A DNA stretch of 64,000 nucleotides from Thunnus maccoyii (taxonomy: Eukaryota > Chordata > Actinopteri > Scombriformes > Scombridae): the NCBI RefSeq assembly GCF_910596095.1, contig NC_056540.1, positions 16,394,501 through 16,458,500 of the forward strand. Direction: 5' to 3'. Made by a program: the position numbers and the translations under genes. How positions within the stretch are numbered: position 1 is the first letter of the stretch; every line of letters starts with the position of its first letter. Below are positions 4,450 through 61,521 of this stretch, one piece after another. Under the pieces are notes generated by a model. It was not told the DNA's origin. It did not search any database and saw only the letters and a list, made by a program, of their open reading frames with translations.

Positions 4450-4470
4450 ATAGCTGTCCAGGGTCCTGAA
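4450..4470 (+). promoter_or_regulatory. RE1/NRSE-like site, exon 3
   Basis: The site reads GCTGTCC then GGTCCTGAA and agrees with the RE1 consensus (complement orientation) at 15 of 21 positions. It is the weakest of the ten main sites. It lies 472 bp before the ATG of the truncated exon 3 and 256 bp before its CSE. Apart from this, 4226-4725 shows nothing recognisable. Confidence 0.5.
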
Positions 4471-4725
4471 ATACATCGGCTTTACTGTTTCCCGGCCAAC
4501 AAGAGTGAATGACTAATGGAATGTTTTGATTTTTTTCATAGTTCTTCATTTGAATGAATACGTAGCTCCTGTAAGTGTTTCGATTATAACATATTGCTAA
4601 TTCAGAACGTTTCAGGCATTTCCGACAGTTTCCAATCTTATTTCTGATCTCTGCAGGTATGCTGACAAAATATATAACTATAATGTAGTATGCATTCATA
4701 CAATTTAAAGTGGTATACAATTCTG

Positions 4726-4780
4726 TCCTCTTGGTGTCACTATAATATCATCGAGGCCATACAAGAGTTCGTCCCTCCCC
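4726..4780 (+). promoter_or_regulatory. Promoter of exon 3: CSE and C-rich block
   Basis: CSE core CTTGGTGTCACTAT at 4730-4743, 216 bp before the ATG at 4942, followed by GTCCCTCCCC at 4771-4780. It is closely similar to the exon 4 promoter, including the spacing to the C-rich block. The promoter therefore looks intact although the coding exon has lost most of its ectodomain. Confidence 0.75.
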
Positions 4781-4941
4781 TGAAAAAGCTTTTGTTTGGT
4801 ACCTCAAAGCATTTGACGTAAGCATGCCAGTCGGATTAGACCGTGTGGTGCGTTTTTCTAAAGATGCGATATTAAACTGTACGGGTATGGATAACTGATC
4901 ATTCATAGAAACAGACACCTGCGTGTTAATGATCTTTGATA

Positions 4942-5571
4942 ATGATGGGGAGCGTAAGACGGTCAAGTGACTACTGTTGGTTTGCTATTTATTTGTCTCT
5001 TTCGCTGCTGTTTTTCGGAGAGCAGGCTGTGGCTGAATTAAGGTATTCGATTCCAGAGGAGGTGAAAGAAGGAACTGTTGTTGGAAATGTTGCGAGGGAT
5101 CTTGGTTTAGACAAACCATCTTTGATTGAACGACGGTTCCGTGTTGTGTCTGGATATAAGGATAAATTTTTTGAGGTGAACGTTTCTCTCTCAGCAACAG
5201 CTACTGTGATTGTCAAACTTGTGGAGCCCAAAGAGGCTTTTGCAGCTTCTGATGTTAAAAGTGCAACTAAGGATGATGAGGAGAGTAATGTGACTTTTTA
5301 TCTGATGATAACTTTGGGCTCAGTTTCAGTACTTTTTCTCATCAGTATCATCGTGCTGATTGCAATGCAGTGCTCCAAAACTACAGACTATACTTCTAAA
5401 TATCTACAAGAAACAAATTATGATGGGACACTGTGTCACAGCATCCAGTACAGATCCGGAGACAAGCGGTACATGTTAGTTGGACCCAGAATGAGTATAG
5501 GATCTACTATAGTTCCGGGCAGCCATGCCAATACTCTGGTGGCTCCTGACAGGAGGAGAACATCTGTAGAG
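4942..5571 (+). CDS. Truncated Pcdh alpha-type variable exon 3 (in-frame internal deletion)
   Basis: 210 codons, against about 785 in paralogs. The start is one of two adjacent ATGs (4942 or 4945). The product keeps a signal peptide ([13 protein letters not shown]), the first ~45 residues of EC1 up to FFEVN, then jumps to [12 protein letters not shown] in late EC6, followed by the acidic stalk, membrane helix and full tail. Measured on exon 4, the missing part is 1725 bp, exactly 575 codons, with AAC shared at both edges, which fits a microhomology deletion. All calcium linkers and the CX5C loop are gone, so adhesion is not expected. The frame, donor (GTAAGC), CSE and RE1-like site are kept, so a small membrane protein with the Pcdh tail could be made. 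It is either a pseudogene in the making or a tail-only decoy; the sequence cannot decide. Confidence 0.85.
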
Positions 5572-6261
5572 GTAAGCCTTCAATATGTATTGCTGCTTAC
5601 AAAGAAATGTTTTGAATAACACTGTGGTTTACAAGGACATGTTTGCCCTAAAATCCCATTGCATAGTGACCAAGACTACTACAGTTCCCATTAAATACAA
5701 ACAACAAACAACTTTGAGGAATTACTATGCTTTCTGTTGATATTACATAAGGTTTGTGGAATTCTGTTGTCTGAGACAGCATTTTGAACCTAATGTCATA
5801 ACTGTTCAACATATATGTCAGCGTGTACTCGGTTTCCGTGAGAGGTGATTTAACTTTGCCAGTCAGCATACAATAATGTTGGATTCAGCTCCCTGGTTCT
5901 GTTTGCTTAGCTCTTCACAACCTTTGGCTAGATTATGCAAACAGTTATACTCTCAAAGCCATTATGAGTACTAGAAGTGTTTCTGTTTTTAATGAAAAAA
6001 TAAAACATTTATTTCCCAGTGAGAAGAACTACAAAACTTACATCTTTGGGATTGAGGTGTGTGTTTGGGAGGGTGTTGGTAAAGTTAATTTTTGGTCAGT
6101 TTTAGCAATTACCTTCAAAAATTACTAAGATATTGATAAAATATTTTAAAGTAAAGTGCTATAAGATGTGGTTGATTGTAAGTATTTATATACATTATGT
6201 AAGAGGCATAATAATTAAGCACCTAAATTCTGTGGTTAAGTTCAGAAAAGTTCTGTTTGTG
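5572..6261 (+). other. Intergenic, exon 3 to exon 4
   Basis: AT-rich DNA with scattered stops in all frames. No gene, RNA or repeat family recognised. A purine-rich AT stretch at about 6460-6512, downstream of the RE1 site, is low complexity. Confidence 0.6.
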
Positions 6262-58361: not shown

Positions 58362-58362
58362 C

Positions 58363-58384
58363 CTCTCTCTCTCTCTCTCTCTCT
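58363..58384. repeat. (CT)11 microsatellite
   Basis: An uninterrupted 22-base CT run. Confidence 0.95.
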
Positions 58385-61300
58385 ATCATATATTACATTT
58401 TAGAGGATTTCTTTGTGTATCTGTTTATATATACCTGGTTAGAGTTTGAGTGCAGTGTGAGTCCAGCTGTCTAGTTAATGAATAGTATTCTATAGGGTTA
58501 ATAAATCCACCCATGAATACAAATTTTAATATTTTAAAACATCTGTGTCATATGTTAGATAGGGAGGTAATTCTTCCATTTGGAAACTATGTTCTCATGA
58601 AAAAGTCAATACATTTTCTTGTATTTTTAGATTTCTTTATACTCCGAGTGCCATTTCCTCTCCTCCCTTCCCTCTGACTTAATTCTCTGCTGTTGTGTCA
58701 CTTCTCCATGTTTCCTGTGGTTCCCTATACACCGTTTTTATTACATTATGTCGATCTTTTATCTCTTTATCTCCCTTCATCTCCTCTGCTTTATCAGAGA
58801 ATCTAAATCATTAGTGTACTGCTGCATTTAGGTGTGGTTCTAGTCACACTGATGCTAAAATCAAATGCTGTATGAGCCATGTCACAGCTCTTCATAAGAT
58901 AATCACCAGATTAAAAAAAAACAACAAACAATTAATTTGGTTAATCACCTCAGCAAGTGTAAAAATATCAATCTGTACAATAAGCATGATATGAGATAGG
59001 TACTGAATGAAGAAGGAAACATGCACAAGGAGTAGGTTGCCCCCTTGTGCTCTGATGAGCTCTACTCCACACAAAAACAGCCCAATGACATCAGTAACTC
59101 GTCACACAAAGCAGGATGTAGTGTGCGGACTGCAGGAGTGGGGGTGGTCTCCAGAGGCCTGGCCCAGAGAGGGTACAGTGGGCTGGGCATAGCTGAATGA
59201 AAAGGTCAGGCTCTCTGTGGGCTGTGGGGGTGGAAAGAGAAGCAGGCGCTGCTGCTGCTAAAGTGAATTTGTCATAGTGAATATGCTGCTGCAGTGCAAC
59301 ATTACCAATGCATGAGCAGCCCAACTGCAACCATGGACAGCCTGGCCTGGTATGCATAGGAGTGTGTTTTATGTTTGCTTGGGTGGGTGGGTGAGTGTGA
59401 GTGTGTGTGCTTGTCACTATGATGTGATCTGATTCGTCCAGTGAGATGAAAGGGCAGCATGAAAGTGAACAGTAGCAGACAAAAAGGTGGAAGTGGGAAG
59501 AAAATCTAGAGTGTTACTTTTCCTACTATTTCCTGCCTTCTGAAAAATAAACCCATAGGCTTGTGCATTAGCGTGTGTATGTGAGTATGTGTGCGCATGC
59601 ACACATGCATCATGTCTGTGCAGGAGACGGTGTTGCTATAGAGACGAGAGCTGTGCAGAAGGAGAGAGGAAAGGGGGGGAGATACTCGCCTTGGAGCATG
59701 TTCAGATAGCACCCTTCCCCCATCTACTCACACACAGATGAATAGTACAGTACACGCCCTCATAACACACACTTACTCACAAGCACACACACAACTGTTG
59801 GCTATGACTATGATGAAATCATTAGTATGGAGGAGATACAGTAGCTAATTTGGTGACTCTATGTGGTGGTAGCCCTTTAATAATGCAGTGATATGCCTTA
59901 AAAAAGCAGCTACCCGCTGCTTCCACCTGTGCCGACCCCTCCCCTCACCTCCCACTCACTGCTCCCTCTCTTCCTCTCATCACACTGCTCTTGGTGCTCC
60001 CTACTGTTTCTCCTATATGACGTGATAGGTAAACCACAGACAGAGAAGGAAGTTAACAGACACACATGAATTTAACCACTAGATTTATTTACACAACTCC
60101 CTGTGCTCAGGGAGCAAACACTGTGTATCTTTCTTAACCACCATTTATTCACTATTAATTATTCAGCAAATTCGATTATCATATCCTAAGGAAATGTGAC
60201 TTTCATCAATGCATACATACAGAGTTCATGATTAAAAATTGGAAGAGTCTAATAAAATAAAGCTTTAACAATTAAAGCAACATATGTGCATCAATTATTG
60301 TGTCTGCGCACACAGAGCTATTAGTTAATTAACTGACCCCTCTCAAGATGTCTCCCATTGGAGCTGTATCAGTCACTGGAAGAGGAGGTGATGTGGCAGC
60401 TCAGTGTGTTCAACATCTTTAACACCTCTATGACACAATCAGTGTTTCCTCCACAATGGCCAAATGAGCATGCTCCATAAAAAGGCCCTGACTTTGCTCT
60501 CAAGATGGATTCAATACTTCAGCCTCTGATATCATCCATACACTATATGTGGGCTATGAAGTACTAAATTCATTTGTACCACTGTACCTTTGTTTTATTG
60601 TTTCCTGGAATTCTGTGACAAATGGTGTGTTTAACATACATTAAAATCGCCTGTTCATTTAGCCTACAAAATAAGGTCACAGTGTCAGCAGGCCACAAAG
60701 CAGAATCTCCAGTAAGATTTATGAGTTTTAAACGGATAAATTCACTTTACAGAGTTGAGTAAACTCTAACATCAGTGGTCCACGTGTGTGATGTTGATTT
60801 TATGAGAAAGATAATCCAGACAGAAGTCCTTCAAGGTTGGAGCAATATAGACAGTGACCTACAAATAAACCATGAATCATTGAATTTCATCATGGGCTGT
60901 CTGGGTCTGATGGGCCGGGTGATCTTTGTGCGCTTGTATGTATATAAATAACCAACATGTGCATTCTATTCAGTGTCAATGTAAATACAATTTTCTCTTG
61001 CCATACATTAGGAAAATTGAGTATACAAGTCATTGTTTGTGAGCTATTATTATTATTGCATTTTGGGGTTAACGGATGACTGCGGCTCAGTGTGTGATGG
61101 TTATTAATATTTTCAAATCAAATCATGTTACCCACAGAGGGGAAATAGGACAGGAGTTTCTGAATCCAGAGCTTAATCCTGGGATTACAAATGAGGGAAT
61201 GTTCATAAGCTCATGACTACTGTCTCTGTGGAAATGTGGTGAAACACTAAAATACACTGAAATATACCGCAGCACATGGATATCCTTCTTTTGTTCATAG

Positions 61301-61500
61301 AGTTAAATACATCTATTGCCCTCAAGGCTAACAGAGAAAAACAAAGAGAAAAGGAGAAAAGGAGATGGGGTAATGTGGGCACAGTGGGAAGAAAATAAAT
61401 AATTTATTTCTACATTGCATTGCATTCATGTACCATCTTGTAAAATATGAATTTTGGCAGTCAGCACACATCCAGGCAGAAATAACAGGTTTTATATTCA
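58385..61500 (+). other. Non-coding, 5' of the gamma exon
   Basis: No gene or named repeat recognised. GT-rich and GA-rich patches lie at about 59380-59410 and 61330-61365. Confidence 0.55.
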
Positions 61501-61521
61501 GGACATGTCCATGGTGCTGAA
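61501..61521 (+). promoter_or_regulatory. RE1/NRSE-like site, gamma exon
   Basis: ATGTCCATGGTGCTGAA core; 17 of 21 consensus positions, the right half perfect. It lies 423 bp before the gamma ATG and 179 bp before its CSE-like motif, so the alpha promoter layout is repeated in the gamma group. Confidence 0.7.

What the first reader, a model, noticed from the sequence alone, without database searches (positions are those of the whole stretch)
4450..61521. Ordered array of ten RE1/NRSE-like silencer sites, one per promoter
Sites at 4450, 6262, 12278, 18877, 22364, 26318, 30230, 33621, 37136 and 61501 share GCTGTCC and GGTGCTGAA halves with RE1 spacing (15-19 of 21 consensus positions). All are in the same orientation and all lie 424-648 bp before a Pcdh ATG, upstream of the CSE. 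RE1 is bound by REST/NRSF, which silences neuronal genes outside neurons, and REST elements are known in mammalian Pcdh clusters. Here the element seems to be part of the duplicated promoter unit, giving the array a per-exon repressor input on top of CTCF choice.
Basis: partly seen in the sequence, partly recalled or inferred. Interest (0 to 1): 0.75.

Follow-up and report, generated by a model that had tools for sequence, protein, structure and literature searches.

The report
Repressor sites repeated across protocadherin promoters
In this fish genome most of the tandem protocadherin promoters examined carry a well-kept binding site for REST, the protein that shuts neuronal genes off outside the nervous system; promoter REST sites were already known for pufferfish protocadherins, but a neighbouring array here uses a differently built, stretched version of the site.

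Summary
All ten sites are where stated, match the RE1 consensus at 15-17 of 19 specified positions and score 17.0-33.1 on a matrix from 100 other RE1s of this genome; the next window site scores 8.5, the best in 100 shuffles 13.9. RE1 is a real motif here: 1038 matches at up to 2 mismatches, 0 for the reversed pattern, and one REST zinc-finger match. "One per promoter" is wrong: 10 of 14 in the window. The array is larger than the window: 44 sites in 223.5 kb, 43 antisense, none in 119 kb of variable-exon ORFs, present at 37 of 48 alternate-exon promoters. Sites are kept (pairwise identity 0.79-0.84) while flanks are near random. Function as a REST-bound non-neuronal silencer is inferred; it is precedented, since NRSEs in fugu Pcdh promoters were reported (Tan et al. 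2010, seen only through later papers). Not seen described in what I could read: a third Pcdh array, about 0.3 Mb beyond the second, has no canonical RE1 in the 40 kb fetched, but 6 of 9 promoters carry the non-canonical 8-bp-gap form.

The parts
4450..4470 (-). RE1 before truncated exon E2psi (15/19)
   Evidence: matrix 17.0
6262..6282 (-). RE1 before E3 (17/19)
   Evidence: 31.5
12278..12298 (-). RE1 before E5 (17/19)
   Evidence: 33.1
18877..18897 (-). RE1 before E7 (16/19)
   Evidence: 20.7
22364..22384 (-). RE1 before E8 (17/19)
   Evidence: 31.5
26318..26338 (-). RE1 before E9 (16/19)
   Evidence: 23.6
30230..30250 (-). RE1 before E10 (17/19)
   Evidence: 32.0
33621..33641 (-). RE1 before E11 (16/19)
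   Evidence: 23.9
37136..37156 (-). RE1 before E12 (17/19)
   Evidence: 29.8
61501..61521 (-). RE1 before E14, first exon of the second array (16/19)
   Evidence: 22.1
1832..4237 (+). E1 variable exon, no RE1; CSE-like 1622-1638
4942..5619 (+). E2psi, truncated open frame (228 aa stop to stop) with EC2-EC6 mostly missing; CSE-like 4727-4743
6930..9353 (+). E3 variable exon; CSE-like 6701-6717
9712..12084 (+). E4 variable exon, no RE1; CSE-like 9460-9476
12732..15104 (+). E5 variable exon; CSE-like 12467-12483
15903..18278 (+). E6 variable exon, no RE1; CSE-like 15649-15665
19450..21969 (+). E7 variable exon; CSE-like 19205-19221
22924..25296 (+). E8 variable exon; CSE-like 22679-22695
26932..29304 (+). 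E9 variable exon; CSE-like 26669-26685
30851..33283 (+). E10 variable exon; CSE-like 30590-30606
34249..36693 (+). E11 variable exon; CSE-like 33992-34008
37651..40026 (+). E12 variable exon; CSE-like 37427-37443
40480..42870 (+). E13, last exon of the first array, no RE1; CSE-like 40246-40262
61944..63998 (+). E14, first exon of the second array, cut by the window end; CSE-like 61700-61716

Best explanation
These are genuine canonical RE1/NRSE elements (two half-sites, 2-bp gap) set in the distal promoter of most alternate variable exons of a fish clustered-protocadherin locus. REST bound in non-neuronal cells and progenitors would recruit its corepressors a few hundred bp upstream of each CSE/CTCF promoter and keep the exon off, so that stochastic CTCF-dependent choice is possible only where REST is down. 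Shown: motif, gap, conservation, placement, orientation, absence from the variable-exon ORFs, a REST-type zinc finger in the genome. Inferred: REST occupancy, silencing, corepressors, and interplay with CTCF. RE1-less exons would rely on neighbours' sites (a claim I recall from the Tan et al. 2010 abstract; not tested here).
For: Ten of ten sites found, far above shuffled and permuted controls. Genome: 45 perfect matches, 45 of 45 with a 2-bp gap when 1-4 was allowed, reversed control 0; 1038 at up to 2 mismatches, control 0. Locus: 26 of its 44 sites reach 17/19 where the genome average predicts about 0.3. The 44 sites at 15/19 or better compare with a shuffled mean of 0.15, at most 1, in 40 shuffles, and 0.40 in a second set of 30. 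10-mer count without prior motif: RE1 fragments lead (20 of 49 promoters; maximum 6 in 10 shuffles). First-array against second-array sites: RE1 0.80 identical, flanks 0.26-0.27. zf-C2H2_REST profile: one match, E 1e-14. NRSEs silence outside neurons in zebrafish in a REST-dependent way (PMC3529185 abstract; PMC3531662 passages).
Against: No occupancy or expression data. 11 of 48 alternate promoters lack a site at 15/19, so it is not obligatory. Orientation is inherited by duplication and is no independent proof of function. Three further Pcdh exons (C8:16290539, C13:23954329, C13:23978416) have no RE1 in the roughly 4-5 kb fetched upstream of each.
Confidence: 0.88

Rival explanations
1. The sites are passive leftovers of tandem duplication: one ancestral RE1 copied with the promoters and not yet decayed, no longer needed.
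For: Same orientation and similar placement throughout; four RE1-less exons group in the tree; some copies are at 14/19.
Against: Flanks up to 63 bp away are near random identity while the 21 bp stay at 0.79-0.84; within the window sites the free middle positions and the 3' end vary while most half-site core positions do not.
Confidence: 0.07
2. The motif is kept for another factor, or for REST acting in neurons and progenitors to tune promoter choice and not as an outside-neuron silencer.
For: In human cells REST at the HS5-1 enhancer reduces long-range enhancer-promoter contacts and hinders CTCF binding (PMC8096226 abstract and passages); here RE1 lies 168-418 bp from the CSE-like element.
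Against: The bipartite 2-bp-gap grammar is REST's; fish NRSEs silence outside neurons (PMC3531662, PMC3529185); NRSE deletion made Pcdh constructs ubiquitous in Xenopus (PMC3601302 passage).
Confidence: 0.15
3. Chance matches to a loose consensus.
For: At the loose level of 12/19 the excess is small (60 real against 31.5 shuffled).
Against: a clean step from ten sites at 15/19 or more to one at 14.
Confidence: 0.005

Closest known systems
NRSEs of the fugu protocadherin cluster (Tan et al. 2010, NAR 38:4985; not held, seen only as cited or summarised in PMC3601302, PMC8096226 and others; abstract recalled)
   Same: Fish Pcdh cluster; multiple NRSEs, canonical and non-canonical, in promoters; deletion from constructs reported to turn neural-specific expression ubiquitous in Xenopus tadpoles (PMC3601302 passages).
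   Different: I could not read whether that paper reports the strict orientation, the canonical/8-bp-gap split between arrays or the share of promoters; the species here is unnamed.
NRSE sites a, b, c of human PCDH alpha and gamma alternate exons (PMC8096226)
   Same: REST site repeated with the alternate exons of the clustered Pcdh locus.
   Different: Human sites lie inside the variable exons; here 0 of 44 sites lie in 119,157 bp of variable-exon ORFs, and the best score there is 13/19. Half-site-only NRSEs, which exist in human, cannot be excluded in these exons.
Non-canonical 7-9 bp-gap NRSE, e.g. mammalian HS5-1 (PMC8096226; 8- or 9-bp spacer silences in a reporter assay, PMC9903721)
   Same: The third array's sites have exactly an 8-bp gap.
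   Different: There one enhancer site; here a promoter series (6 of 9 promoters). In the window the only 7-9 bp-gap pair at 15/19 overlaps the canonical site at 33621.

Membership tests
Canonical RE1/NRSE | Two half-sites TTCAGCACC and GGACAGCGCC with a 2-bp gap | tested here: met
   10 of 10 in the window at 15-17 of 19; 44 in 223.5 kb
Canonical RE1/NRSE | Matrix score above background | tested here: met
   17.0-33.1 against a maximum of 13.9 in 100 shuffles; the matrix comes from 100 sites pre-selected at up to 1 mismatch, none from this locus
Canonical RE1/NRSE | REST present in the genome | tested here: met
   PF24540 zf-C2H2_REST, one match over the cut-off; gene structure not examined, and the tool's 14 control genomes say little here
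Canonical RE1/NRSE | Bound by REST in vivo | not testable with these tools
   No ChIP data on hand
Canonical RE1/NRSE | Silences transcription outside neurons | not testable with these tools
   Precedent only (PMC3531662, PMC3529185, PMC3601302)
Clustered protocadherin array | Tandem large exons encoding EC domains plus a short cytoplasmic end | tested here: met
   Four of six window ORFs given to one search match cadherin families (the other two were no exons); the rest by similarity
Clustered protocadherin array | CSE about 200 bp before each ATG | tested here: met
   best match 12-17 of 17 positions at 210-265 bp in 14 of 14, consensus read off the same promoters and no shuffle run for it; GGTGTCAGTG in 11 of 25 first-array promoters against a maximum of 4 in 10 shuffles
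Clustered protocadherin array | Shared constant exons downstream | tested here: inconclusive
   PF15974 matches follow the second array, the third array and the C13 exons; none in the window for the first array
HS5-1-type enhancer NRSE | Non-canonical NRSE between the first and second arrays | tested here: not met
   no 7-9 bp-gap pair at 14/19 or more between 42.9 and 61.5 kb of the window
Non-canonical NRSE (third array) | Half-sites 7-9 bp apart | tested here: met
   six sites at 15/19 or more, all gap 8; shuffled mean 0.03, never more than 1 in 100 shuffles

The most novel reading that the evidence does not exclude
Neighbouring Pcdh arrays in one genome carry different REST grammars: canonical 2-bp-gap sites antisense to the genes in the two arrays of this locus, and 8-bp-gap sites mostly in sense orientation in the third array. 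Since 8/9-bp-gap sites silence more weakly than 2-bp ones (PMC9903721 passages), the arrays could be released at different REST levels during neurogenesis, making REST a graded, array-specific gate on the Pcdh code. In both the first and the third array the outermost upstream site found is flipped relative to the rest, hinting at a boundary role.
Probability: 0.25. Interest if true: 0.65.

Novelty: new member of a known kind. Interest (0 to 1): 0.45.

Why it matters
It shows promoter-borne REST input as a maintained element through a large tandem Pcdh expansion: about three in four alternate promoters keep it although little around it is kept. With the human case (sites inside exons) it makes a clean comparison of two placements of the same repressor input. 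The array-specific gap classes offer a natural test of whether weaker non-canonical REST sites shift the onset of expression.

Tried and rejected
Chance: rejected. Transposon or recent segmental copies carrying the motif: rejected for the set as a whole, flanks are near random identity, though some neighbouring promoters are recent copies. Exonic NRSEs like the human ones: none at 14/19 or more in variable-exon ORFs, and no half-site pairs with up to 1 mismatch per half at gaps -3 to 25. At a looser 15/19 total over gaps 0-12, three exonic pairs at gaps 1, 6 and 9 appeared (two of them overlapping), in line with shuffles. HS5-1-like NRSE in the 42.9-61.5 kb stretch: not found. RE1 loss following exon phylogeny: one four-exon clade (16386703, 16396233, 16404164, 16434974) lacks it in two trees, but the formal count is only suggestive for the first array (161 of 2000 shuffles as good) and uninformative for the second (2000 of 2000). 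The low score of the site before the truncated exon as decay: not needed, as an intact relative's site (C8:16389299) has the same count, 15/19. Neuronal identity of genes beside perfect RE1s: ORFs of L001-L008 were listed but not pursued.
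Full report
Setting. The window is C8:16394501-16458500 of a 782-Mb genome in 54 contigs. It holds tandem large exons; four of the six ORFs given to one search match cadherin families, the other two (not exons) match nothing. These are variable exons of a clustered protocadherin locus. A genome search with one exon found relatives along C8:16.29-16.53 Mb, an array at 16.86-16.89 Mb, and scattered ones on C13, C2 and C8:1.2 Mb (57 of 411 candidates scored, so a lower bound). 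Pcdh loci on two chromosomes, one of them small, fit teleosts such as fugu (passages in PMC1852091; PMC4978886). No call names the species; 'teleost' is inferred.

The observation. All ten sites are present at the stated coordinates, all on the minus strand, with 15, 17, 17, 16, 17, 16, 17, 16, 17 and 16 of 19 specified consensus positions. No other window site reaches 15; one reaches 14. Shuffling gives 0.07 sites at 15 or more (100 shuffles), and permuting the motif columns gives 0.05, at most 3 (500 permutations). A matrix from 100 other RE1s of the same genome scores them 17.0-33.1; the next window site is 8.5, and the best of 100 shuffled windows 13.9. That matrix is built from sites pre-selected by consensus at up to one mismatch, so it is strict on the cores.

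Is RE1 a real motif in this genome? Yes. With a gap of 1 to 4 allowed, 45 perfect matches were found, all with gap 2, and none for the reversed pattern. With two mismatches there are 1038, reversed control 0 (100 of them listed). The zf-C2H2_REST profile matches once (64.1 bits, E 1e-14). The gene around that match was not examined, and the tool's 14 control genomes (0 matches) say little about vertebrates.

The wider array. I fetched 16345001-16568500 apart from the window and scanned it as one stretch: 44 sites at 15/19 or more. Shuffled means are 0.15, at most 1, in 40 shuffles and 0.40 in 30 others. Twenty-six reach 17/19; the genome average predicts about 0.3. Forty-three are antisense; the exception is the outermost one at 16353759. 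None lies in the 119,157 bp of variable-exon ORFs, whose best score is 13. One search counts 38 of 49 exons with an antisense RE1 in their own 5' gap. Leaving out the C-type-like exon at 16548984, whose nearest site is 13.7 kb away, gives 37 of 48 alternate exons: 17 of 25 in the first array (the truncated one included) and 20 of 23 in the second. All seven promoters with gaps of 591 bp or less lack a site; the other four that lack one have gaps of 798, 970, 1190 and 10232 bp, and two of these (970 and 1190) hold a 14/19 hit. ATG choice is automatic and may be off for some exons. C8:16295001-16345000 was not fetched, so the first array may have more exons than counted.

Conservation. In the window the 21 bp are 0.83 identical on average over the 45 site pairs, against 0.32 and 0.31 in the 20 bp on either side. 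Over the locus: 0.84 within the first array (18 sites), 0.79 within the second (25), 0.80 between them, with flanks of 0.25-0.33 within and 0.26-0.27 between. These comparisons are ungapped, so indels lower the flank values. Without any prior motif, the commonest 10-mers of 49 promoters are RE1 fragments (20 promoters, against a maximum of 6 in 10 shuffles), followed by the CSE core and an unidentified second-array word, 11 each. Selection on the element, and not on its surroundings, is the simplest reading.

CSE. Each of the 14 window promoters has a CSE-like element 210-265 bp before the ATG, and RE1, where present, is 168-418 bp further upstream. The consensus was read off these same promoters and no shuffle was run for it. 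In several second-array promoters the first-array consensus fits poorly.

A different grammar next door. The array at 16.86-16.90 Mb (nine exons of 700 aa or more in the 40 kb fetched) has no canonical RE1 even at 14/19. It has six half-site pairs at 15/19 or more with a gap of exactly 8 bp, one of them perfect; the only other pair at gaps 0-19 is a gap-5 reading of that same perfect site. Shuffles give 0.03 at gap 8, never more than 1 in 100. They precede 6 of 9 exons, 595-1493 bp before the first Met; five are sense and the outermost is antisense. Two of the six share flanks and are recent copies. Perfect sites with a gap of 7-9 bp occur eight times in the genome, and one of these is here. 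Human REST sites have gaps of 2 or 7-9 bp (PMC8096226 passages), and 8- or 9-bp gaps silence in reporters, more weakly than 2 bp (PMC9903721 passages). Exons at C8:16290539, C13:23954329 and C13:23978416 have no pair at 15/19 at any gap of 0-13 bp in the 10 kb fetched around each. In a quick tree the third array forms its own clade; one of its rows has a very long branch, and which named subcluster it is was not settled.

Mechanism. Best reading: REST bound here outside neurons silences the promoters, and CTCF-dependent choice follows where REST is absent. REST repression of clustered Pcdh-alpha genes and its weakening of enhancer-promoter contact are shown in human cells and in mouse, chiefly through the HS5-1 enhancer site and not the per-exon sites (PMC8096226 abstract and passages). 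That NRSEs silence in fish is shown in zebrafish (PMC3531662 passages; PMC3529185 abstract). For this genome both are inference.

Prior art. A review states that NRSEs lie in the promoters in fugu and within coding sequence in mammals, canonical and non-canonical, and that their deletion turns neural expression ubiquitous in tadpoles (PMC3601302 passages), citing Tan et al. 2010, which is not held. So REST input at fish Pcdh promoters is known. I did not see a description of the strict orientation or of the split between canonical and 8-bp-gap arrays in the listings of searches or in the passages read, but the key paper was not readable, so no claim of priority is made.

Verdict. The array-specific gap classes are the part worth following.

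Noticed in passing
G000:C8:16861786-16894741 (L028-L031): A separate Pcdh array about 0.3 Mb beyond the second array lacks canonical RE1 in the 40 kb fetched but has 8-bp-gap non-canonical sites at 6 of 9 promoters, five of six sites in sense orientation.
   Followed up: partly
C8:16353759 and C8:16861786: The outermost upstream RE1 found in the first array and in the third array are each flipped relative to the rest of their array, about 1.45-1.5 kb before the first exon found.
   Followed up: no
window 4933-5619: A 228-aa open frame joins the start of EC1 directly to the end of EC6, membrane span and tail; an internal in-frame deletion of a variable exon with its promoter (CSE-like element and RE1) still present.
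   Followed up: partly
second-array promoters, C8:16456387-16535311: Other shared 10-mers such as ACAAAGAGAC (11 of 23), CTCCTCCCAG (10 of 23) and TGTAGACCAT (9 of 23), maximum 4 in 10 shuffles, not identified.
   Followed up: no
window 42871-61500: Constant exons of the first array would be expected here, but the Cadherin_tail profile found none in the window.
   Followed up: no
C8:16535420: An 18/19 RE1 sits just after the last alternate exon of the second array and 13.7 kb before the C-type-like exon at 16548984.
   Followed up: no
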